Of a DNA stretch of 64,000 bases, positions 27,436 to 51,464 are shown one piece after another; the stretch's first letter is position 1, and the number at the start of each line of letters is the position of its first letter. A model generated the notes under the pieces. The model saw nothing but the letters and a program-made list of their open reading frames with translations, searched no databases and was not told the origin of the DNA. This DNA is from Rhizohabitans arisaemae. Lineage in GTDB: Bacteria; Actinomycetota; Actinomycetes; Streptosporangiales; Streptosporangiaceae. The stretch is taken from assembly GCF_025996515.1 (NCBI RefSeq), contig NZ_BLRH01000009.1:434001-498000 (forward strand), in the 5' to 3' direction. The position numbers and the translations under genes were made by a program.

Positions 27436-27541
27436 TACTTATGCCCTGGTGGCTCCTTCGCCCGACCTACGATGATCGCTGTGTAAAAGCTTGATCTACG
27501 GTGGAAGCTCTTGATGATCCTCAATGTGCTGGAGTGATCTA

Positions 27542-27580
27542 CAAGCCGTTTCCCAGTACCGGCCCCTAGCCTCGTCACCA
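27542..27580 (+). promoter_or_regulatory. Shared upstream element of LRR gene 1
   Basis: About 31 of 39 bases match 31220-31258 upstream of the second LRR gene, outside the coding sequence. It contains TAGCCT, a plausible -10 element. It is probably the promoter duplicated with the gene. Confidence 0.5.
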
Positions 27581-27640
27581 GCCCCCGCATCCGGCGCGAC
27601 AGACCGAGCCCGGAAACACCGGCAACGACGAGGAGAGGAC

Positions 27641-28510
27641 ATGGTCAGGTCCGAAGACGGCCAGGCGGTCGCCGCCGAACGGATCGGCAAGTGCCTGCGA
27701 GACGGATCGGCCACACTCGACCTGTCCCGTCTCCGCCTGGAGACGATTCCCGAATCGCTCACCGCCCTCACTCACCTGACCGCACTCAACCTGAGCGGCA
27801 ACAAGCTGACGGTCCTGCCCGAGTCACTGGGCAACCTCACTCACCTGACCGGGCTCGACCTGTTCGGTAACGAACTGACCGCCCTGCCCGACTCACTGGG
27901 CAACCTCACCGCCCTCACCGAGCTAGACCTGGAAGAGACCGAGCTGACCGCCCTGCCCGAGTGGCTGGGCAACCTCACTCACCTGACCGATCTCCATCTG
28001 TGCGACAGCAGGCTGACCGATCTACCCGAATCAGTGGGCAAGCTCACCGCCCTCAAAAGCCTCAACCTGGCCGGCAACAAACTGACCGCCCTTCCCGAGA
28101 CCTTGGGCAACCTCACCGCCCTCACCATGCTCAGCCTGTTGGGCAACCGGCTGACCGCCCTTCCCGAGTCACTGGGCAACCTCACCGCCCTGACCTGGTT
28201 CCACCTGGGTTTCAACGAACTGACCGCTCTACCTGAGTCGCTGGGCAACCTCACCGCCCTCGAAAAGCTCGCACTGGAAAACAACCGGCTGACCGCGCTA
28301 CCCGACACGTTCGGCAACCTCACCGCCCTCACCACACTCAGCCTGAGCGGTAACCGGCTGACCACCCTTCCCGAGTGGCTGAGTGACCTCACCGCCCTCA
28401 CCTTCCTCGACCTGAGCGGCAACGAGCTGAGCGTCCCGCCCGAAGCGTTGGAGAGCCTCGCGGCCCTCCACGAGCTACACCGGGACGGCTACCGGCTGAT
28501 CTCCAGGTGA
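27641..28510 (+). CDS. Cytoplasmic leucine-rich repeat protein 1
   Basis: 289 residues from ATG 27641 (GAGGAGAGG upstream). No signal peptide or membrane helix. After an N-terminal cap (RIGKCLRDGSATLDLSRLRL) it holds ten 23-residue LRR units of the form SLGNLTALTxLxLxxNxLTALPE, plus a partial last unit. LRR arcs bind proteins; the partner is unknown. Third-base agreement between units is high, so 69-bp DNA repeats run through the gene. A paralogue with the same cap lies at 31350. Confidence 0.85.
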   Translation: MVRSEDGQAVAAERIGKCLRDGSATLDLSRLRLETIPESLTALTHLTALNLSGNKLTVLPESLGNLTHLTGLDLFGNELTALPDSLGNLTALTELDLEETELTALPEWLGNLTHLTDLHLCDSRLTDLPESVGKLTALKSLNLAGNKLTALPETLGNLTALTMLSLLGNRLTALPESLGNLTALTWFHLGFNELTALPESLGNLTALEKLALENNRLTALPDTFGNLTALTTLSLSGNRLTTLPEWLSDLTALTFLDLSGNELSVPPEALESLAALHELHRDGYRLISR

Positions 28511-31349: not shown

Positions 31350-31997
31350 ATGACGAACTCCGAGGCGGACCAGGCGATCGCCGTCACACGGATCACCGAG
31401 TGCCTGGAGAACGGATCGGCCGACCTCGACCTGTCCGGTCTCCAGCTGAGCACGGTACCCGAGTCACTCGCCCGGCTCACCACCATCAAATCGCTCGACC
31501 TGTCCGCCAACCGGTTGACCGCTCTACCCGAATGGCTGGGGAACCTCACCACCCTGGATTGGCTCGACCTGAGGGGCAACCGGTTGACCGCTCTCCCCGA
31601 GTGGCTGGGGAACCTCACCGCACTCACCTGGCTCGGACTAAGCGGCAACCAGTTGACCGCCCTACCCGACTCTCTGGGAAACCTCACCGCACTCACCTGG
31701 TTCTACCTGTATGACAACAAGCTAACCGCTCTACCCGACTCGCCTGGGAACCTGACCACACTCACCTGGCTCGGACTGAGCAGCAACCAGTTGACCGACC
31801 TACCCGAATGGCTGGGAAACCTCACCACCCTCAAATCGCTCGACTTGCGCCGCAACCGGTTGACCGTCCTACCCGACTCGCTGGGAAACCTCACCACCCT
31901 CGAACTGCTCGACCTGGAAGGCAACGGGTTGACCGCTCTGCCCGAGTCCTTGGGGAACCTCACCGATGTCGCCTGGTTCGGCTCCGACGGTCGCTAA
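31350..31997 (+). CDS. Cytoplasmic leucine-rich repeat protein 2
   Basis: 215 residues. Same cap as the first paralogue (RITECLENGSADLDLSGLQL) followed by seven complete 23-residue LRR units and a degenerate eighth. No signal peptide. Start ATG after GGGAAGG. The repeat number differs from the first copy (ten), as expected for unequal recombination among 69-bp units. Partner unknown. Confidence 0.85.
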   Translation: MTNSEADQAIAVTRITECLENGSADLDLSGLQLSTVPESLARLTTIKSLDLSANRLTALPEWLGNLTTLDWLDLRGNRLTALPEWLGNLTALTWLGLSGNQLTALPDSLGNLTALTWFYLYDNKLTALPDSPGNLTTLTWLGLSSNQLTDLPEWLGNLTTLKSLDLRRNRLTVLPDSLGNLTTLELLDLEGNGLTALPESLGNLTDVAWFGSDGR

Positions 31998-42838: not shown

Positions 42839-43238
42839 GCGGTGCCGGCCAGGAGACGGGGCTTGAGCAGCACCGAACGGCCCGTGAAGGAGCCCGGTGG
42901 ACTTCTCCTATCGTGACCGGCCGTTCCAATGCGGATGGCGTCTTCGACAGACCGTGCCATGGCGTTCATACATCAGATAATCCGGCTAATAGCTCCACAA
43001 AACACCCTTTTAGCCAGCTACAGCCTGGCGGGTTCTAGAAACCCGGACGCCTTTTCCCGGGGTCGGACGATCCCGCTGGTCAGGGCCGCCATCCGGTCCT
43101 CTTTGGCACGGCCGGAGCGAATTCCTGGACGTCTTCCCAACTTCTCCTGAAAATATCCGAAATACCGGTAGGGGTAGCTCTCTCCACCAGTTAATGTGTC
43201 ATCAACCGATGAATCCCCTTCACAAGTGGAAGATGCCT
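42839..43238. other. Gene-free stretch upstream of a methyltransferase
   Basis: A lower-GC segment (42950-43030) and short frames without family resemblance. No strong hairpin or repeat; it must hold the methyltransferase promoter. Confidence 0.4.
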
Positions 43239-44054
43239 GTGACTGGTACTTCACCCGAGTTCCCCGGAGAGCAGTGGACCGCCTTGGACACCGGAGTCGC
43301 CCACACGGCACGTGTCTGGAACTACTGGCTGGGCGGCAAGGACAACTACGCCGCCGATCGCCAGGTGGGTGAACAGATCCGGGAAGTCATTCCCGACATC
43401 ATCACCTCGGCCCGGGCGGACCGCGCCTTTCTCGGGCGAGCCGTCCGCTATCTGGTGGCCGACGCGGGGATCCGGCAGTTTCTGGACCTCGGCACCGGCC
43501 TGCCCACCGCGGGAAACACCCATGAGGTCGCCCAGGAGCTGGCACCCGAGAGCCGCATCGTCTATGTGGACAACGACCCGCTCGTCCTGATTCACGCCCG
43601 CGCCCTGCTCAACGGGACCCCGGAAGGGGCGACCGACTACATCGAGGCCGACGCGCGAAACACCGAGCAGGTCGTCCAGGCCGCCTCCCGGACGCTCGAC
43701 CTCGGCCGGCCCGTCGGGCTGATGCTGCTGGGGATCCTGAACTTCATCACCGACGACGACGAAGCCGTCGAGATCATCGACCGGCTCGTCGCCGCCGTCC
43801 CCTCGGGGAGCCACCTGGCGATCGCCCACCCCACCAGCGAGGTCAACACCGAGGCCGCGCTGGAGTCCCTGCGCCTGTGGAACGAGCACGGCGAACCGAA
43901 GATCTGCTTCCGCAGCCGCGAGGAGCTCATCCGGCTCTTCGACGGACTGGAGCTCCTGGAACCGGGTGTGGTCAGCTGCTCCCTGTGGCGGCCCGAGGCG
44001 GGCGAGACGCCCGCGCCCGTCTACCAGTTCTGCGGCCTCGCCCGCAAACCCTGA
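43239..44054 (+). CDS. SAM-dependent methyltransferase, DUF574 family (second copy)
   Basis: 271 residues from GTG 43239 (GGAAG 6 nt upstream; ATG 43233 is possible). Family marks in order: RVWNYWLGGKDNYAADR, RQFLDLGTGLPTAGNTHEVA, VYVDNDPLVLIHARALL, DLGRPVGLMLLGILNFI. Only moderately similar to the copy at 24602, so not a recent duplication. Acceptor unknown. Ends at a hairpin shared with the convergent hydrolase. Confidence 0.88.
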   Translation: MTGTSPEFPGEQWTALDTGVAHTARVWNYWLGGKDNYAADRQVGEQIREVIPDIITSARADRAFLGRAVRYLVADAGIRQFLDLGTGLPTAGNTHEVAQELAPESRIVYVDNDPLVLIHARALLNGTPEGATDYIEADARNTEQVVQAASRTLDLGRPVGLMLLGILNFITDDDEAVEIIDRLVAAVPSGSHLAIAHPTSEVNTEAALESLRLWNEHGEPKICFRSREELIRLFDGLELLEPGVVSCSLWRPEAGETPAPVYQFCGLARKP

Positions 44055-44085: not shown

Positions 44086-44925
44086 TCACCCCTCCCGCAG
44101 CTCGAATCCGCGGTCCGACCGGCACACCACCCCCGACCGGGAGAAGTGCGAGGCGAGGAGCACGGCCCCGCGATCGGCCAGATCGCCGAGGGTCGTCAGG
44201 CGCGTCCGCGCCGCCTCCCGGTCGCTCCCGCACAGCATCGAGGAGAGGTCGGGCCGGGTCAGCTGCAGCGGATGGTGGAGCAGGTCCCCCGTGATCGCCA
44301 CCGTCCGGCCCCCTCCGACGACCTCGACGATCAGGTGCCCCGGGGTGTGGCCGGGCGCGGGCGTCAGCCGTACCGCCTGGTCGATGTGGTGCTCGCCGCG
44401 CACCCGATCCAGCAGACCGGCCGCCTCGATCGGCAGCACGCTGTCGGCGACCCGGGCCGCGTGCCGGATCCGGCCGCTGCGCAGGTGTTCGTACTCCGCG
44501 GCGCCGACGAGGTAGCGGGCCTCGGGAAACATGGGCTTGAGGTCGTCGGTGGTGTTCCACCCGACGTGGTCGTGGTGGAGATGGGTGTTGACCACGGTGT
44601 CCACGGTCTCGGGTGCGATCCCCGCCGCGGCGAGGGTGGCCGGCCAGCGTGAGGTGAACCCGGGGAAGGGCCCCTTTCCCCGCTTCCGTCCGCCGAGGCA
44701 GGTGTCCACGACGATCGTCCGGCCCGCGCCGACGATCGCGAACCCCTGAACGATCATCGGGGCGGACCGGTCCGCCTCGGCGATCAGCGCGGTGAGCTCG
44801 TCCTCGGCCACCTGCGGGAACAGCCGGGCGGGCGGCAGGACGTCACCGGCGGCGTCCACGAGCGGGATCACCCGACGTTCGCCGACCACGACGGGCTCCG
44901 GCTGGGTCGGGGTGTGCAACGGCAT
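44086..44925 (-). CDS. MBL-fold metallo-hydrolase
   Basis: 279 residues from ATG 44925 (GAGGAG 5 nt upstream). The metal site is THLHHDHVG, with further ligands in APGHTPGH and ITGDLLHH. Quorum-quenching lactonase-like enzymes share this layout, but the substrate is not evident. No signal peptide. Downstream of a TetR gene on the same strand, with 159 bp between them. Confidence 0.88.
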   Translation of the reverse strand: MPLHTPTQPEPVVVGERRVIPLVDAAGDVLPPARLFPQVAEDELTALIAEADRSAPMIVQGFAIVGAGRTIVVDTCLGGRKRGKGPFPGFTSRWPATLAAAGIAPETVDTVVNTHLHHDHVGWNTTDDLKPMFPEARYLVGAAEYEHLRSGRIRHAARVADSVLPIEAAGLLDRVRGEHHIDQAVRLTPAPGHTPGHLIVEVVGGGRTVAITGDLLHHPLQLTRPDLSSMLCGSDREAARTRLTTLGDLADRGAVLLASHFSRSGVVCRSDRGFELREG

Positions 44926-45084
44926 ACGGGCTCCTCGGCGGCGTGGTGAAAGACCGGGCGGCGGGGGGTGACGGCCAAGGATGCGCACAGCCCGTACCGG
45001 AGCGTCAATCGATAGACCTCACCTGACCAGCCAATACCGGACAGATGCCGACCTTTCATCAGGAAACCACATCCGGTACGGCCG

Positions 45085-45756
45085 TCAGCCGGAGCTCCCC
45101 CGGCCACGGGGATTCCGGTCCGGTACGGCCGACGCGGTCCGGAGGAGGGCGGACACGCCCGGTCCGAGCGTGGTGTGGAAGGCGGCGTTCAGCTGAGCGG
45201 GCGTCTCCACGACGTCTTCGTCCACACAGCGGGCGATCAGCCCCATGAAGGCGCCGACGACGCAGGTCACGGTCAGGTCGAGGTCGGGCGGCGGAGCGGC
45301 CCCCGCCGGGAGCGCGGCGAGCAGTTCGGCCCGGACCACCTCGGCGAGGATCTCGCGGATCCGGCCCTGGATGGCCGTCCCGCTGTGCCGCCCCAGCAGG
45401 GCTCGGACCAGGTGCCGCTCCTGATCGATGTGCTCCAGGAGCGGCAGGCTGAAGGCGAACACCCGGCCCGGCCTGAGCGGCACCTTGCTGCCGAAGGCCT
45501 CCCCGAGGTCTTCCAGGATGTCCAGGAACACCTCCTCCTTGCCGGCGAAGTGGGAGTAGAAGGTGGAGCGCCCGACGTCGGCGTCGTTGATGATGTCGGT
45601 GACGGTGACCCCGTCGTAGCCCTTCCGCAGCATCAGTTCGATCAGGGCGTGGCGGATGGCCTGTTTGGTCCGCCGGACCCGCCGATCAAGCCGCTCCGCC
45701 GGGACGTTTGCCGGAATCGCCGGGTCACGGTCATCGATATCAAACATGTCGTTCAT
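45085..45756 (-). CDS. TetR family transcriptional regulator
   Basis: 223 residues. HTH: GYDGVTVTDIINDADVGRSTFYSHFAGKEEVF. The start ATG lies within a perfect palindrome and has no ribosome-binding site, which points to a leaderless, self-repressed transcript. The metallo-hydrolase downstream on the same strand is a likely target. The stop of the large P-loop gene is only 24 bp upstream. Confidence 0.9.
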   Translation of the reverse strand: MNDMFDIDDRDPAIPANVPAERLDRRVRRTKQAIRHALIELMLRKGYDGVTVTDIINDADVGRSTFYSHFAGKEEVFLDILEDLGEAFGSKVPLRPGRVFAFSLPLLEHIDQERHLVRALLGRHSGTAIQGRIREILAEVVRAELLAALPAGAAPPPDLDLTVTCVVGAFMGLIARCVDEDVVETPAQLNAAFHTTLGPGVSALLRTASAVPDRNPRGRGSSG

Positions 45757-45780: not shown

Positions 45781-47964
45781 TCAACCCGGATCCGGCTCCT
45801 CGCCGAGCTCGGTGAGGAGCCACCGGGTGAGGGCCCGAAACCGGCGGGCCTCCGCGGACGGGCCGCCGCCGGGGCCCGATCGCGTGGTCCGATCGGCGTC
45901 GGCGGCCAGGTCGTGCAGAACCTGCCGGGCCCGGGGATGCCGAGACTCGAGCGCGTTCCGCCACAGGAGCACGATCGGCAGGCGGAGCTCCGGCCGCTCG
46001 TCCGCCAGCTCCATGAGCACCGGCAAGCCGGGCCGGTCGCCGCGCCGGGTGGCCAGCCTGACCAGGCAGTCCGCCGCGGCCTTGCGCCACGGCGGGTGCC
46101 GCCGGCCGGCCCATTCGGCCAGCGTCCAGACGACCTCCGCCTGCGCGCCTGCGGCGAAGAGGTCCAGCAGCGAGCGCCGGACGATGCCGATGATCGCTTC
46201 TTCATCCCGTTCCGTCATGGCTTCGTCTCCTCCGTCGAATCGTCCGAGCCGCCGTTCGACGACCCGGCGCATCCCGGCGAACGCGTCGCCGGGGTAACGC
46301 GCGCCGAGGAAGGTGCCGTACGCGGCGAGCGCCGTCGCCCGGCACCGGACGTCGGCGCCGCCCGCCCAGTCGCCGACGAGGCGGCGCACCCGGTCCGCGA
46401 GGACCCCGTCGTCGGCGAAGGCGAGCGCCTCGAGGGCCCACGCCACGACCTGCCGGGGCCGAAGCCTCCCGTCCCGTGCCCCCACGTCGAGCACGGCGCG
46501 CAGCACGGCCGGGAAGTCGTGCCGGGCCCATTCGGCGACGGCCTGGGCGACCTTGACCCGGACCCGGACGTCCGGGTGGCCGGCCAGGCCGTGGATCCAG
46601 GTGAGCACCGGGTCCCGCAGACCGGGACGAGCCCGCCACACCGAGCGCAGGATCGGCTCCCGCAGCCCGGGGTGACGCAGGCGGGCGACCAGGCCCCGGC
46701 CCGGCCCGTTCTCTTGTTCGGCCACCCCGACCAGCGGCGACCACCGGCCGGCCGGCCCGCCGAAGGTGTCCGGCGGTTCCGCTTCCCGGCGCGGCAGCAG
46801 CCCGTACAGGTCCTCGGCCGCGCGGACGACCGTCGGCAGCGGCATGGCGTCCAGTACGGCGACGGCGACGGCGAACGTCCGCCGCCACCCGGGCGAGGCG
46901 CCGAACCCGGTCTGCCAGGCCGCCAGCTCCTCGGCGAGCACCGGCTCGGCCAGGACCTCCGCCACCGGCAGGCCGTCGAGGAACCCGGCGGCCAGGCGTT
47001 CGGCGAGCCCGGCCGCCTCGCGCAGGGATCGGCACCGCCGGATCTCGGCGGCGACGCCGGGGGCGGCCCGGACCGCCGCGCCGCCGACGGGGCCGAGCCA
47101 GGCCCTCAGGTGGGCGTCGAACACCTCGTCCGGCCCCGGCGGGGTGTGCCGGACGAGGCGGCCGGCGTCGGCCGTGGGCGCCGTGTCGGCGACGATCACC
47201 AGGACGCCGCGCCGCTCGGCGAGGGTCCGGGCCAGGTCGGCGAGCGGTCCCCGGCCCGGCGGTCCGGCCGCCGCGCGAAGGACCAGGACCAGCCCTGAGT
47301 TCGCGGGGAGGCCGGCGGCGTGGCGCGGATCGGGCGGCAGCCCCTCGATCAGGTGGACCCGGCCGGTCGGATCGGTCCCCCGGGGTACCGCGTGCCGGGC
47401 GACCGCGGCGAGCGCGGTGACGGTACGGCCGGTTCCCGGCGCGCCGGCCAGGATCCGGACGGGGTCGCGGGAGAGGCCGCGGACGAGTTCGCGTTCGGCG
47501 GGGGTCTCCACCAGGGTGGCCTGGAGCCGCCGGACCTGCCACGGGGTGAGCGGGCCCGCCCGGGGGAGGTCGGGACCGCCGCCCGTGAAGAAGGCCGCCC
47601 GTCCACGCGGCCGGTCGCCGGGCCGTTCGCCGAGGACGCCGTCGCGGGTACCGAATCCTTGGGTCCTGGCGTGCAACGCGACCTCGGATTCGTGTTCCGG
47701 CTCCTCGGGGGCGCCCTCCAGGGTTCGGCCCGAGCCCGGCTCGGTCCCGCGGCGCGGGGGTTTGCCGTCGTCACCGGCCGGGGCCTCCCGATCGGGTGGC
47801 CGGCCGGCCGCGTCCGGGTGCCTGGCCGGATCCCCGCCGGGTCCGGTGGGTACGGCCTGCGGCGGCTCGGCCGTGGCCGGATCCGGGACCGACCTCTCCG
47901 GCAGGCGGCGGAGCACGACGGGGCCGGTGGCCGCCGGGGCGGCCGCTCCCCCGCTGCCGCTCAC
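45781..47964 (-). CDS. P-loop NTPase-like protein with helical-repeat C-terminus
   Basis: 727 residues from GTG 47964, overlapping the cyclase-like stop by 4 nt. Residues ~1-125 are Pro/Gly/Arg-rich and probably disordered. A P-loop domain follows with Walker A GAPGTGRT at 174-181, where Arg replaces the essential Lys; the likely Walker B (GLVLVLRAA) lacks the acidic residue. The C-terminal ~350 residues are helical with HEAT-like periodicity (HPGLREPILRSVW; HPDVRVRVKVAQAVAEWA). It may be a regulatory or scaffold relative of STAND NTPases. Partner of the overlapping cyclase-like gene. Function unknown. Confidence 0.75.
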   Translation of the reverse strand: MSGSGGAAAPAATGPVVLRRLPERSVPDPATAEPPQAVPTGPGGDPARHPDAAGRPPDREAPAGDDGKPPRRGTEPGSGRTLEGAPEEPEHESEVALHARTQGFGTRDGVLGERPGDRPRGRAAFFTGGGPDLPRAGPLTPWQVRRLQATLVETPAERELVRGLSRDPVRILAGAPGTGRTVTALAAVARHAVPRGTDPTGRVHLIEGLPPDPRHAAGLPANSGLVLVLRAAAGPPGRGPLADLARTLAERRGVLVIVADTAPTADAGRLVRHTPPGPDEVFDAHLRAWLGPVGGAAVRAAPGVAAEIRRCRSLREAAGLAERLAAGFLDGLPVAEVLAEPVLAEELAAWQTGFGASPGWRRTFAVAVAVLDAMPLPTVVRAAEDLYGLLPRREAEPPDTFGGPAGRWSPLVGVAEQENGPGRGLVARLRHPGLREPILRSVWRARPGLRDPVLTWIHGLAGHPDVRVRVKVAQAVAEWARHDFPAVLRAVLDVGARDGRLRPRQVVAWALEALAFADDGVLADRVRRLVGDWAGGADVRCRATALAAYGTFLGARYPGDAFAGMRRVVERRLGRFDGGDEAMTERDEEAIIGIVRRSLLDLFAAGAQAEVVWTLAEWAGRRHPPWRKAAADCLVRLATRRGDRPGLPVLMELADERPELRLPIVLLWRNALESRHPRARQVLHDLAADADRTTRSGPGGGPSAEARRFRALTRWLLTELGEEPDPG

Positions 47965-48767
47965 GACCGGTCCAAGCCCTCGGTGAAGGTCATCGAATCG
48001 GCCTGATAGCCCCGGGCGTGCCGCCCGGTCAGCCGCATGGTGAAACGCGGCCCCCACTCCGGCCCCTTCCGGATCTCCGGCTCCTGGGCCCGGGAGCGGA
48101 ACGGATCGGGGTACCCGGCCGCCTCCGGGCCCGGCGCCGCAGCCTCCGGCCCGTACCCGATCTCGTCCGGGAGGGTGAAGGTCCGCATGTCGTACCCCGG
48201 GATGTGCAGGTAGGCGGGCACGTTGAAGGCTTTCGCGGGGATCCGCACGCCGATCTCGCGGAACTGCTCGCTCCGCAGGCCGTCCAGCTCCGAGCAGACG
48301 ACCTGCCGGTAGACCGGCTCGGAGACGAGCAGGGCCAGCTGGGCTCGGTCGCCGAGGACGAGGGCCCGCCGGAGCGGGGCGCAGTCCAGCAGCCGGCCCA
48401 GGGTGATGAGCGCGTGCCCGGCGAAGGAATGCGTCCGGAGGGTGTCCAGGTGCATGGCGACCCGGAGCCGGATCTGCATGTCCGGGACCCGGTCCCGGTT
48501 GTGCGTCGCCAGCCGGGCGTCGAGTTCGCGGACGAAGCGCCCGACCATCGTGACGAGATCGACGTCGGGTGGGAGGACGGCGAGTTCGCCGTCGCCGGTG
48601 GGACGCTTGAGCCACAGTTCCCGGTCCATGCCCAACGATGCGGCGACCTCGCCGAGCATCCGATTTCCATCGAGTTTGATCTCTTCCTGCCGGCGGGTGC
48701 TGCGCTCGCTGTACTTCTGGACGTCGAATCCGCAGACCAGCCGGGCGACAAGCGCGGAATTGGGCAT
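47961..48767 (-). CDS. Class III nucleotidyl cyclase-like protein
   Basis: 268 residues from ATG 48767 (GGGAGG 5 nt upstream). The catalytic fold reads in order: Asp15 in GFDVQKYSERS, Asp59 in RPTGDGELAVLPP (the two metal-binding aspartates), RLRVAMHLDTLRT (99-111), then FAGHALITLGRLLDCAP with the transition-state Arg at 125, and SEPVYRQVV. The Asn usually paired with that Arg is replaced by Thr/Leu, so activity needs proof. ATP, GTP, CTP or UTP could be the substrate; pyrimidine cyclases of Pycsar systems belong to the same superfamily. The C-terminal ~70 residues are unrelated. Start of a two-gene unit with the P-loop protein. Confidence 0.72.
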   Translation of the reverse strand: MPNSALVARLVCGFDVQKYSERSTRRQEEIKLDGNRMLGEVAASLGMDRELWLKRPTGDGELAVLPPDVDLVTMVGRFVRELDARLATHNRDRVPDMQIRLRVAMHLDTLRTHSFAGHALITLGRLLDCAPLRRALVLGDRAQLALLVSEPVYRQVVCSELDGLRSEQFREIGVRIPAKAFNVPAYLHIPGYDMRTFTLPDEIGYGPEAAAPGPEAAGYPDPFRSRAQEPEIRKGPEWGPRFTMRLTGRHARGYQADSMTFTEGLDRS

Positions 48768-49405
48768 GAAGCCTCCCATTACTTGAATTCGGAAAGAAAC
48801 GTGGTTCCCCGGACCGTTTCGGGTCTCCGGTGCCGAGGGATACGTCCACGGCGGCCCGGCCTGAGGAATAGGCCGGACCGTCCGGGATATGGAGATTGCC
48901 GTACGGCGATTGCGCGGGCCGGCCGCTTCCGGGGCCCGGGCCTTGAGTCACGCTCACCGCCGCGAAGGGGCGACCTCTTCGTGGTGGGCCCGTCACGGGT
49001 CGTGACCCGTTCCCGGCCTGCGCCGCCTACCGGCGTCTACACCAAATGATCATATGCATAGAATCTCGCACTATTCCGTGGTCATACATCTTTGTATCAC
49101 CCCAGAGCCAGCCCAAGCAGGAAGAATCCGACACTTCCTCTTAGGTTAGGAATTCTGGACACATCACCATAAAGCGGTTTCTGGTTATTCGGTTGGCGGG
49201 GACCAAACGAGCCAGCGCTCCAACTATGCCCCAAACTCCGGAATCCCAATGTCCAGAAATAGACGTTCAAGGCATCAAATTCCAAGACATAGAATGATCA
49301 TTAAGAGAAGAACTGAAATAGGCGCATAGCAACACCAGGTGCTGGGAAAGCAGTCATCCGGCCCCCAAACCGCACCGCCGTACGGCGCCGGCTCCGTCCC
49401 CGCCC
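48768..49405. other. AT-rich gap between Crp and the cyclase-like gene
   Basis: 638 bp. From ~49030 to ~49340 GC is clearly lower than in flanking genes. A 62-codon minus-strand frame (49097-49285) ends SVGFFLLGLALG but has no good ribosome-binding site and no family, so it is not called. The region must contain the promoter of the cyclase operon. Confidence 0.45.
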
Positions 49406-50086
49406 TCACCGGGACGGAGCCTTGGCCTCCGCGATCCGCCTCAGCCTGGCCAGGTCGTAAATGATGATTCGGTTGCGTTCGGTGTCCAGGACCCGCTCGT
49501 CCCGGAGCCGCTGCAGCACCTTCGCGACGGCGCTCCGGGACAGTCCGACCGTCCCCCCGAGCTCGGTCTGATTGAGCGGGATCTCGGCCGTGTTCGGCGC
49601 GCCCCGCTCGGACGACCGCGGCAGGCAGGACTCGGCGAGCCACACCAGCATGCGGGCGACCTTGAGGGGCGAGGGGAGCGTGAGGATCGAGGTCCGCAGA
49701 TCCTGGCCTTCCAGCACCCGGCTCGCCAGGTGACCGCAGATGGCCGCGGTGAGCCCGTTCTGCTCGCACAGCTCGGTGAAGCGGGGACCGGAGATCTTCC
49801 TGACCGTGCAGACCTCGGTCGCCGTCACCGTGGCCGAACGGCGGCGGGGACCCAGGAGTGCCAGCTCCCCCAGCAGCTCGTACGGCCGCCTCAGCGCGAG
49901 GACGACCTTGTGCCCTTCGGAATCCACATGGGTGACCTTGACCAGGCCTCGGAGCAGCACAAGCACGCTGTCCTCTTCGGCGCCTTGATGCAGCAGCACG
50001 TCACCGGGTTGGTAGCCGCCGGGAGCCCCCGCTGTGACAAGCACGTTCCAGGTCTCGGGTGGGAGGGTCGAGCCGTTAAGGTCCAT
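49406..50086 (-). CDS. Crp/Fnr family transcriptional regulator
   Basis: 226 residues. Cyclic-nucleotide-binding jelly roll with a complete phosphate-binding cassette (LLGELALLGPRRRSATV: Glu and Arg both present), dimerisation helix, then winged helix with recognition segment ELGGTVGLSRSAVAKVLQRLRDE. No Fnr-type Cys cluster. Effector probably cAMP/cGMP-like. ATG after AGGACGG. Same strand as cas6 (upstream) and the cyclase unit (downstream). Confidence 0.92.
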   Translation of the reverse strand: MDLNGSTLPPETWNVLVTAGAPGGYQPGDVLLHQGAEEDSVLVLLRGLVKVTHVDSEGHKVVLALRRPYELLGELALLGPRRRSATVTATEVCTVRKISGPRFTELCEQNGLTAAICGHLASRVLEGQDLRTSILTLPSPLKVARMLVWLAESCLPRSSERGAPNTAEIPLNQTELGGTVGLSRSAVAKVLQRLRDERVLDTERNRIIIYDLARLRRIAEAKAPSR

Positions 50087-50424: not shown

Positions 50425-51114
50425 TCAGCGGATCCAGCCGAAGCCTTCGATGGTGGACAGGCCGAGCCCCCAGGCGTGCAGGGCGTCGAGCAGCTCGGGG
50501 GCCGCACCGACCCGGACCCGGGCGCAGGCGCCGATGCGCCACCCCTTGGGCATGTCGAAGCGGCGCCTCGGTCCCTGCTCCAGGACCTCCACCTCGACCT
50601 CGTTCGGCAGGCCGAGACAGTCGGCCTTGTGGCGGATGTTGTGCCGGAGCCGCTCGGCGAAGGGCTCGTCGTCCGGGAGGAGGTACCGGCCCTCGTGCTT
50701 GAGGAGCACCGGGGAGAGCGTGCCGAACTCGGCGACCCCCGAGGAGTGCTCGGACGGGGCGCCGACCCGTACGCCGAGCAGGGTCATCCAGGTGCCGCCC
50801 CAGCGGATCCGCTCCCGGCCGGCGAGCCCGGCGAGGAGGCACCCGGCGATCCTGGGGACGGGCGACCCCATCCAGACATGCCCCTTGCCGCCGGTGGCGT
50901 AGACGCCTTTGCGCCGCTCCACCCCGTCGAAGAGCGGGGGTGAGATCCCGATCGGCCGGAGCGGCGTCCCCGCCCAGCCGGAGTTGTGGAGTTCCTCCGA
51001 CAGTGCCGGGTCCTGTCCCTCCAGCAGGTCGTAGAGGACCCCGCGCGCCGGCCCGTGGACGTCGGCCCAGCTCATCTCCGGTACGTTCACCGCCACATCC
51101 ACCCGGAACCGCAC
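50425..51114 (-). CDS. cas6: CRISPR-associated endoribonuclease Cas6, orphan
   Basis: 229 residues from GTG 51114 (GGGTGGG ~8 nt upstream). Typical double-ferredoxin pattern: strand VRFRVDVAVNVPEM, helix, putative catalytic His43 in SEELHNSGWAGTPLRPIGIS, central EHSSGVAEFGTLSPVLLK, and the C-terminal Gly-rich loop WGLGLSTIEGFGWIR. Cas6 cleaves pre-crRNA in repeats. No other cas gene or CRISPR array is found in this window, so it is either a remnant or acts in trans. Confidence 0.82.
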   Translation of the reverse strand: MRFRVDVAVNVPEMSWADVHGPARGVLYDLLEGQDPALSEELHNSGWAGTPLRPIGISPPLFDGVERRKGVYATGGKGHVWMGSPVPRIAGCLLAGLAGRERIRWGGTWMTLLGVRVGAPSEHSSGVAEFGTLSPVLLKHEGRYLLPDDEPFAERLRHNIRHKADCLGLPNEVEVEVLEQGPRRRFDMPKGWRIGACARVRVGAAPELLDALHAWGLGLSTIEGFGWIR

Positions 51115-51464
51115 GTGCGCCGACCCACCCTGTCCTGTTGTCGCGGAAGCCGTCCCCCAACGACTAACACCTCGGCGCGACCGGCGACCGGGGAACGGAC
51201 GGTCCTGTGATCGACTCGATACACTCCGGGCTCCCCACGTGACACACCGTTTCACCAGCACGCAGGGCCTATCTACTGACATAAGCCCTTTTGGCGAGCT
51301 TTTGGGTCTTGACTCCAGGTTAGGCCGGTTCTAACGTCCGAAACTAATAAGAAACTTTACTAAGAGTTTATCCTGGTAAGTGTCCACCCTGCCTTCACCT
51401 CTGAAGTGTCACGACCCCAGGCGGCCGTGACTCCACCCCCCACCTTCACGAGAGGAAGCAACCG
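51115..51464. promoter_or_regulatory. Intergenic control region of cas6 and chitinase
   Basis: 350 bp between divergent genes. Near the chitinase side it is AT-rich and holds two inverted repeats: GTTAG-N7-CTAAC (51319-51335) and AAACT-N8-AGTTT (51352-51369). The latter resembles elements seen before secreted hydrolase genes in related actinomycetes; the binding protein is unknown. No CRISPR repeats here. Confidence 0.45.

What the first reader, a model, noticed from the sequence alone, without database searches (positions are those of the whole stretch)
47961..48767. Cyclase-like gene overlapping a P-loop/HEAT-like gene: possible second-messenger conflict cassette
The class III cyclase landmarks are present (Asp15, Asp59, Arg125), but the Asn position is changed and the protein carries a non-family C-terminal tail. 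The next gene starts inside its stop codon, so the two are translated together. Cyclase-plus-effector pairs of this kind (for example Pycsar) are antiphage systems, yet the partner here is not a known TM or TIR effector.
Basis: partly seen in the sequence, partly recalled or inferred. Interest (0 to 1): 0.75.

Follow-up and report, generated by a model that had tools for sequence, protein, structure and literature searches.

The report
Immune-like receptor wired to nucleotide cyclase
The gene is a nucleotide-cyclase-like enzyme that, in many relatives, sits between a gene for a cyclic-nucleotide-responsive regulator and a gene for an immune-receptor-like protein, and the cyclase and receptor usually carry matching short motifs, suggesting a bacterial alarm pathway from receptor to second messenger to gene control.

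Summary
The gene is real but lies on the minus strand (47961-48767). The 268-residue protein has the class III cyclase fold, with Asp15, Asp59, Arg125 and Lys179 kept and Ile at the Asn position. The next gene overlaps its stop codon by 4 bp and encodes a STAND/AAA-like domain (Walker A Lys to Arg) plus HEAT repeats.

Two features were missed. (1) A CRP-like gene (cNMP-binding domain plus HTH, 49406-50086 minus) lies directly upstream, as in 63 of 83 cyclase/P-loop pairs. CRP-like genes occur in 66 of the 83 pairs, but in 1 of 31 P-loop loci without an adjacent cyclase. (2) In relatives the cyclase's 'non-family tail' carries a ~29-residue Asn/Gly-rich motif matching its own partner's N-terminus (62-63 of 83 pairs, p<=0.01), the layout of bacterial NLR amyloid-signalling (BASS) pairs. 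Elsewhere SARP/BTAD or TIR proteins fill the cyclase's slot.

In the window itself, only the cyclase-side motif is detectable, and only with a profile from relatives (0 of 1000 shuffles reach it). The direct pair test is negative.

Most likely route: receptor, motif templating, cyclase, cNMP, CRP-type regulator. It is not Pycsar. A new variant of a known kind; function untested.

The parts
47961..48767 (-). Class III nucleotide-cyclase-like protein (P0002, 268 aa); core about residues 1-200, disordered tail about 202-268
   Evidence: class III fold; D15, D59, R125, K179 kept; I121 at the Asn position
47964..48047 (-). C-terminal motif of the cyclase (last ~28 residues), divergent effector-side signalling motif
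   Evidence: profile of relatives' motifs gives 16.1 bits, 0 of 1000 shuffles reach it, rank 10 of 2545 ORF C-ends; pairwise tests against its own partner and against all other tails were negative
45781..47964 (-). P-loop/HEAT protein (P0003, 727 aa): disordered N-terminus about 1-133, STAND/AAA-like domain about 123-339 with Walker A GAPGTGRT (Lys to Arg), HEAT repeats about 340-727
   Evidence: homologues
47961..47964 (-). 4-bp overlap GTGA of cyclase stop and P-loop start (probable translational coupling)
   Evidence: same overlap in 56 of 83 pairs
49406..50086 (-). CRP/FNR-like regulator (P0004, 226 aa): cNMP-binding domain with GE...RSA residues plus HTH_Crp_2
   Evidence: directly upstream on the same strand in 63 of 83 paired loci
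48768..49405 (.). 638-bp gap between the CRP-like gene and the cyclase, partly AT-rich; in relatives 49 of 63 gaps are 15-173 bp

Best explanation
A three-gene signalling module: CRP-like regulator, cyclase, NLR-like receptor. The P-loop/HEAT protein acts as a receptor: HEAT repeats sense an unknown trigger and the degenerate STAND-like domain holds or releases its N-terminus. In most family members that N-terminus carries a short Asn/Gly-rich motif that is matched at the C-terminus of its own cyclase. Activation would let the receptor motif nucleate and template the cyclase tails, clustering cyclases. Class III active sites form at dimer interfaces, so clustering would switch them on. The cyclic nucleotide made (base unknown) would be read by the CRP-like protein, which changes transcription. 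Shown: gene order, fold, conserved active-site residues, cognate motif sharing in the family, CRP linkage. Inferred: receptor role, templating, catalysis, messenger identity, CRP as reader, defence role. In the window copy only the effector-side motif is detectable.
For: Pair: 83 of 115 loci with a P-loop hit have the cyclase directly upstream (84 with L195). Residues in the 83: D15 81, D59 80, R100 82, R102 83, R125 79, Asn 24, K179 76. Motif: cyclase tail vs own partner N-terminus mean 63.1 vs 33.0 non-cognate; best of 20,000 re-pairings 37.7; cyclase-core control 25.3 vs 25.5; 63 of 83 pairs p<=0.01, 62 of 83 with another N-terminal cut; 38 of 51 clusters at 45% identity hold a significant pair. 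Motif segments are Asn 4.0x and Gly 2.2x enriched over the core, Leu 0.1x. [quoted passage not shown] CRP-like gene in 66 of 83 paired loci vs 2 of 32 without (Fisher p 2e-13); with L195 put right 67 of 84 vs 1 of 31 (p 2e-14). CRP positions in 66 proteins: G 66, E/D 66, R 64, S/T 49. Slot swap: SARP/BTAD (L052, L188, L189, L210) and TIR (L200) by Pfam; 9 of 19 tested upstream genes match their P-loop partner at p<=0.01. Window tail: profile from relatives 16.1 bits, p 0.001.
Against: The window pair fails the direct test: tail vs own partner p 0.67-0.71, and its receptor N-terminus matches no motif profile (p 0.28-0.84). The second pair in the same genome (L109) also fails (p 0.81-0.83) and has no CRP hit. 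The TIR pair L200 is not significant (p 0.27). The Walker A Lys is missing in 69 of 83, so ATP-driven switching is doubtful. No CRP operator was established. The window gap to the CRP gene is 626-638 bp, longer than usual. No defence model matched the window proteins, and family members gave only weak matches to unrelated models. A RHIM-like tetrad occurs in only 12 of 62 motif segments, 6 expected from shuffles. Amyloid formation, catalysis and phage defence were not and could not be tested.
Confidence: 0.55

Rival explanations
1. A regulatory rather than defensive module: a split, AfsR-like transcription switch. The receptor senses a metabolic or developmental cue and controls transcription, directly through a SARP partner in some loci and through cyclase plus CRP in others.
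For: In several loci without the cyclase the slot holds SARP/BTAD proteins, many with motif-like tails; the cyclase version carries a CRP-type regulator, so both outputs look transcriptional. AfsR is a SARP with a nucleotide-binding oligomerisation domain and TPRs (PMC10936776, start of the abstract in the listing).
Against: TIR in the same slot at least once (L200); patchy distribution (89 of 297 family genomes), which fits accessory functions better than core regulation. Neither excludes it.
Confidence: 0.25
2. The cyclase core is catalytically dead and only binds a nucleotide or scaffolds; the CRP-like gene responds to a cyclic nucleotide made elsewhere and merely controls the operon.
For: The catalytic Asn is missing in 59 of 83; Kaur et al. 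report that several vWA-fused cNMP cyclase domains in conflict systems are catalytically inactive (PMC7159879 passages).
Against: Both metal Asp, Arg125 and the C-terminal Lys179 are strongly kept, and an Asn-lacking cyclase with activity is described (Rv1900c, His for Asn, PMC4886424 section 4 part 1).
Confidence: 0.15
3. A Pycsar system: the cyclase makes cCMP or cUMP and the second gene is the effector.
For: Class III cyclase in an operon with a conflict-type partner.
Against: No PADLOC model matched the window cyclase and none of 9 family members matched a Pycsar model; no CNBD, TM or TIR family was found in the partner by Pfam; the CNBD sits in a DNA-binding protein.
Confidence: 0.05

Closest known systems
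Bacterial NLR amyloid signalosomes (BASS motifs with Bell, CHAT or TIR effectors; PMC7889193 and PMC8086366, passages read)
   Same: Adjacent or overlapping genes; motif at the receptor N-terminus and effector C-terminus; pair-specific similarity; filamentous actinobacteria
   Different: Effector is a class III cyclase with a linked CRP-type gene; receptor is a degenerate STAND/AAA-like plus HEAT protein; match to BASS1-10 models was not tested; amyloid formation unproven
Conflict systems with cNMP cyclase domains and EAD coupling (Kaur et al. 2020, PMC7159879, passages read)
   Same: cNMP cyclase domain as a module in actinobacterial NTPase conflict systems; EADs of adjacent genes resemble each other; CRP-like genes noted near some systems
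   Different: Coupling here is by short Asn/Gly-rich motifs; the window pair matched no model of another component; this CRP/cyclase/HEAT triad was not in the passages read
Pycsar (PMC11224242, passages read)
   Same: Class III cyclase with two metal Asp in a small gene set, likely cyclic-nucleotide signal
   Different: No CNBD-TIR or TM effector found; the cyclic-nucleotide-binding protein is a CRP-type DNA binder
DUF2652 nucleotide-cyclase-like proteins (PMC4886424, abstract and section 4 part 1 read)
   Same: About 250 aa; metal Asp and Arg kept and Asn replaced by Ile in the mycobacterial set
   Different: No Pfam match of the window protein or of 9 family members to that family; a HEAT partner is not mentioned in the part read
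AfsR-type SARP-NOD-TPR regulators (PMC10936776, listing only)
   Same: Nucleotide-binding oligomerisation domain plus repeats controlling transcription; SARP proteins occupy the cyclase slot in some loci
   Different: Here split into separate genes, with cyclase plus CRP in the window version

Membership tests
Class III nucleotide cyclase | Class III catalytic-domain fold | tested here: met
   Foldseek E 1.1e-7 (5d0h_B), VIA Z 15.7, rmsd 2.9 over 166 residues (3mr7_A)
Class III nucleotide cyclase | Two metal-binding Asp | tested here: met
   D15 and D59 in the window; 81 and 80 of 83 in the family
Class III nucleotide cyclase | Transition-state Asn and Arg | tested here: inconclusive
   R125 kept (79 of 83); Asn is Ile in the window and Asn in only 24 of 83; an active cyclase without this Asn is described
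Class III nucleotide cyclase | Cyclase activity | not testable with these tools
   needs an assay
Pycsar | PycC-type cyclase | tested here: inconclusive
   no PADLOC match for the window protein; one of 9 members matched only an unrelated model at E 0.049; clade not tested by phylogeny
Pycsar | Effector with cyclic-nucleotide-binding domain plus TIR, or a TM effector | tested here: not met
   partner is STAND/AAA-like plus HEAT with no such Pfam match; the CNBD is in a CRP-type HTH protein
[quoted passage not shown]
BASS amyloid signalosome | Shared motif at receptor N-terminus and effector C-terminus | tested here: inconclusive
   met in most of the family (62-63 of 83 pairs); in the window effector side detected, receptor side and direct pair test negative
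BASS amyloid signalosome | NLR-type receptor: STAND NTPase plus repeats | tested here: inconclusive
   weak nSTAND3 hit in 3 of 9 members, best E 0.001; AAA-like fold for 123-339, Z 10.3, and HEAT repeats; Walker A Lys kept in 14 of 83
BASS amyloid signalosome | Motif forms amyloid | not testable with these tools
   only composition shown
CRP/FNR regulator (third gene) | cNMP-binding domain plus Crp-type HTH | tested here: met
   PF00027 70.2 bits (cut-off 27.5), PF13545 51.1 bits (cut-off 27)

The most novel reading that the evidence does not exclude
A prokaryotic NLR-like receptor that transmits its alarm by motif templating (amyloid-type) to a class III cyclase, whose cyclic nucleotide switches a dedicated CRP-type transcription factor. 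It would be an NLR, prion-like contact, second messenger and transcription in one three-gene operon, with the cyclase interchangeable with SARP or TIR effectors.
Probability: 0.4. Interest if true: 0.85.

Novelty: new variant of a known kind. Interest (0 to 1): 0.7.

Why it matters
If true it joins two known themes, NLR amyloid signalling and nucleotide second messengers, in one operon, and gives bacterial NLR-type pairs a measurable output (a cNMP and a CRP regulon) in place of an unknown one. [quoted passage not shown] The swap of cyclase for SARP or TIR proteins beside the same receptor family makes modularity directly testable.

Tried and rejected
Two-gene Pycsar reading: rejected as membership (see table).

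Shared motif in the window pair itself: pairwise tests of tail against own partner were negative, and so were tail or N-terminus against all other tails or N-termini. Only a profile from relatives found the effector side. I chose those relatives after seeing that L181 and L183 rank high for all three window genes, and added motif-like tails of SARP loci by eye. Three models and two window segments were scored, six tests in all; the three with the tail were positive (p 0.001, 0.002, 0.001), the three with the N-terminus negative.

CRP operator search: the best TGTGA-N6-TCACA match upstream of 62 CRP genes had on average 3.44 mismatches against 3.48 in shuffles; 10 of 62 had two or fewer, against 6% of shuffles. 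A weak excess, not followed.

Other conserved neighbours: in 39 long paired loci no gene family beyond the three was found in more than 7 loci. The crude ORF caller and single-linkage BLAST recovered even the three known genes in only 26, 15 and 14 of 39 as families, so this is insensitive.

Plasmids and phages: the P-loop protein gave 2 weak records of 72,556 plasmid records, the cyclase none of 50,697 phage records.

PDB profile searches gave no significant match (best E 0.21 with A2, to cyclase 3mr7_A, and 0.02 with A1).

Literature: a search for 'amyloid signaling' with 'nucleotide cyclase' returned one paper, PMC8195603, where 'amyloid' occurs only in the reference list. 'cyclase' has no occurrence in the main texts held of PMC8086366, PMC12261475 and PMC7889193. 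The original BASS paper (Dyrka 2020) and the original Pycsar paper were not read.

Rows dropped and corrected: of 121 loci (window included) scanned (L060, L061, L062, L064-L066, fetched for their cyclase) had no P-loop hit and were left out. Of the 32 counted as unpaired, 2 had a P-loop frame too short to use (L056, L125), 2 hold only about 0.1 kb upstream (L110, L208), and L195 has a cyclase 465 bp upstream that my limit missed; L209 and L210 have a cyclase hit on the other strand. All motif statistics are for the 83. In one search, 19 of the 32 were tested, those with a plausible upstream gene; L195 was among them by mistake, L174 and L175 are near-identical, and L198 looks like low complexity.
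Full report
OBSERVATION. The ORF at 47961-48767 is on the minus strand. The partner P0003 (minus 45781-47964, 727 aa) starts with a GTG that overlaps the TGA stop (GTGA). P0002 has no match at E<=1 in Pfam, NCBIfam or PADLOC; P0003 has four Pfam matches, all below cut-off (best HEAT_2, E 0.0005), and none in NCBIfam or PADLOC.

FOLD. An AlphaFold2 model of P0002, made from 9 sequences (window plus L138-L145), is confident for about residues 1-200 and disordered for 202-268. The 50 Foldseek rows shown are all nucleotide cyclases, best E 1.1e-7; VIA-align gives Z 15.7, rmsd 2.9, over 166 residues to 3mr7_A. P0003 is disordered for 1-133 and is then modelled as an alpha/beta domain and a long helical repeat. 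The repeat resembles HEAT proteins such as PP2A A subunits (Z about 12, rmsd about 10), and residues 123-339 resemble AAA domains (PAN, Z 10.3, rmsd 3.8, 184 residues). By the tool's own note such Z values are not high for repeats. Foldseek's first row is the STAND protein Avs3 at E 4.4e-4 with TM-score 0.16, which is weak. Of 9 family members, 5 hit HEAT_2, 3 hit HEAT (best E 1.8e-7) and 3 hit nSTAND3 weakly (best E 0.001). Walker A of the window protein reads GAPGTGRT; in the family its Lys position is Arg in 58 of 83, Lys in 14 and others in 11.

THE PAIR IN OTHER GENOMES. Counts include the own genome. A search with the cyclase matched 50 of 120 relatives at E 1e-10. The P-loop protein matched 12 of 120 at E 1e-10, and a profile of its family 40 of 394 class genomes at 1e-15 and 89 of 297 family genomes at 1e-20. 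I fetched stretches. In 115 loci with a P-loop hit, window included, 83 have a cyclase hit directly upstream on the same strand, 56 with a 4-bp overlap. A recheck adds L195, whose cyclase lies 465 bp upstream, so 84 of 115. Two of the 83 (L063, L067) were fetched for their cyclase. Eight named loci, from Microbispora siamensis and catharanthi, Planobispora takensis, Sinosporangium siamense, Streptosporangium minutum and three Actinomadura, all hold cyclase, P-loop and CRP-like genes.

ACTIVE SITE. Across the 83: D15 in 81, D59 in 80, R100 in 82, R102 in 83, R125 in 79 and K179 in 76. The Asn position is Val in 44, Asn in 24, Ile in 9 and others in 6. So the Asn change is common in the family and both metal ligands are under strong constraint.

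THE TAIL. In the first alignments the tails of several cyclases looked like the N-termini of their own partners. Test: last 60 residues of each cyclase against the first 170 of every partner, Smith-Waterman with BLOSUM62. Cognate mean 63.1, non-cognate 33.0; the best of 20,000 random re-pairings was 37.7; the same test with a piece of cyclase core gave 25.3 against 25.5. Against 1000 shuffles of each tail, 63 of 83 pairs have p<=0.01 and 52 have p<=0.001. The cognate partner ranks first for 37 of 83 tails and among the first three for 53. Cutting the N-terminus before Walker A instead gives 62 of 83. With P-loop proteins clustered at 45% identity, 38 of 51 clusters hold a significant pair. Motifs have a median length of 29 and end a median 6 residues from the cyclase C-terminus. 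Segments under 40 residues are enriched over the core in Asn (4.0x), Gly (2.2x), Ile (1.8x) and Gln (1.5x) and poor in Leu (0.1x), Pro and Glu (0.4x); a RHIM-like tetrad is in 12 of 62, against 6 in shuffles. This is the layout described for BASS motifs (PMC7889193), some of which were also found by local pairwise alignment of neighbouring proteins (PMC8086366). That these motifs form amyloid is inference.

THE WINDOW'S OWN TAIL. The window pair fails the pair test (p 0.67 to 0.71) and a search against all other tails. The loci that rank high for all three window genes are L181 and L183; their motifs resemble those of SARP-type proteins L052, L174, L188, L189 and L194. A profile of effector- and receptor-side motifs of these seven loci, chosen partly by eye, scores the window tail at 16.1 bits; none of 1000 shuffles reached it (best 5.4). 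Among 2545 ORF C-ends the window tail ranks tenth, after the seven tails used in the model, the near-identical L175, and L056, which was not used. The window's receptor N-terminus does not match any of three profiles (p 0.28 to 0.84). So the effector-side motif is probably present but divergent; the receptor side is diverged beyond detection or lost.

THE THIRD GENE. P0004 (minus 49406-50086) is a CRP-type protein: cNMP_binding 70.2 bits, HTH_Crp_2 51.1 bits. Homologues occur in 66 of 83 paired loci, 63 of them directly upstream on the same strand, 49 of those with gaps of 15-173 bp; the other three (L067, L108, L120) are not adjacent. As first counted they occur in 2 of 32 P-loop loci without the cyclase (Fisher p 2e-13). 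One of these, L195, does have the cyclase; corrected, 67 of 84 against 1 of 31 (p 2e-14), the one (L056) lying several kb away. None of the 6 loci with cyclase but no P-loop gene has one. In the 66 CRP proteins the positions G, E/D, R and S/T are kept in 66, 66, 64 and 49; that these are cAMP-binding residues in CRP is recalled knowledge. The window has G, E, R, S, A. The CRP-like gene thus goes with cyclase plus receptor, the pattern expected if it reads the cyclase's product. The window's gap of 626-638 bp is unusual and partly AT-rich.

SLOT SWAP. Where the cyclase is missing, several loci hold another gene in the same place: SARP/BTAD proteins (L052, L188, L189, L210) and one TIR protein (L200, TIR_2 30.4 bits, cut-off 28) by Pfam, and small unassigned proteins (L132, L205). 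Of 19 such genes tested, 9 tails match their partner's N-terminus at p<=0.01 and 14 at p<=0.05; the TIR pair does not (p 0.27). L174 and L175 are near-identical, L198 looks like low complexity, and L195 should not have been in this set. L209 and L210 also have a cyclase hit nearby on the other strand.

MECHANISM. Shown: operon order, fold, constraint on catalytic residues, pair-specific motifs, CRP linkage, slot swap. Inferred: HEAT repeats sense; the receptor N-terminus templates the cyclase tail; clustering activates the cyclase; a cNMP goes to the CRP-like protein; transcription changes. Whether this is defence or physiology is open: SARP and CRP outputs suggest transcription, TIR and patchy distribution suggest conflict.

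NOVELTY. Each part has known relatives. The combination of receptor, cyclase with cognate motif, and CRP was not found in the passages read of Kaur et al. (PMC7159879), in the passages read of the amyloid-signalling papers, or by the search for amyloid signaling with nucleotide cyclase. The library is limited to open-licence papers, so this is not proof that it is unpublished.

Noticed in passing
window 50425-51162 (minus): Cas6-type protein (Cas_Cas6_C 34.4 bits, cut-off 23) next to the CRP-like gene; a repeat scan of the window shows no CRISPR-like array of spaced short repeats.
   Followed up: partly
window 27524-28510 and about 31440-31970 (plus): Two blocks of 69-nt repeats, about 3 kb apart; the first, and by its similarity the second, encodes 23-residue leucine-rich repeats.
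   Followed up: no
G000:C33, locus L109: A second cyclase/P-loop pair in the same genome; a motif match is visible by eye but not significant, and no CRP-like gene was found there.
   Followed up: partly
locus L002 (G000:C33:1435139-1435618): A paralogous cyclase with a longer C-terminal part, TPR-like by eye, lies near a gene that looks like a CHAT/caspase-like protease by eye.
   Followed up: no
locus L003 (G000:C34:821871-822443): Another paralogous cyclase reading frame contains an internal TGA.
   Followed up: no
loci L052, L188, L189, L210: SARP/BTAD regulators with motif-like tails directly upstream of the same P-loop/HEAT family: a possible split AfsR-like switch.
   Followed up: partly
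loci L209 and L210: A cyclase hit lies on the opposite strand near a P-loop gene whose own slot holds a different gene (SARP/BTAD in L210), so both kinds of effector may sit side by side.
   Followed up: no
window 43194-44054 (plus), 44086-44988 and 45085-45756 (minus): Neighbours on the other side are an S-adenosyl methyltransferase (PF04672), a metallo-beta-lactamase-fold protein and a TetR regulator; no link to the module was tested.
   Followed up: partly
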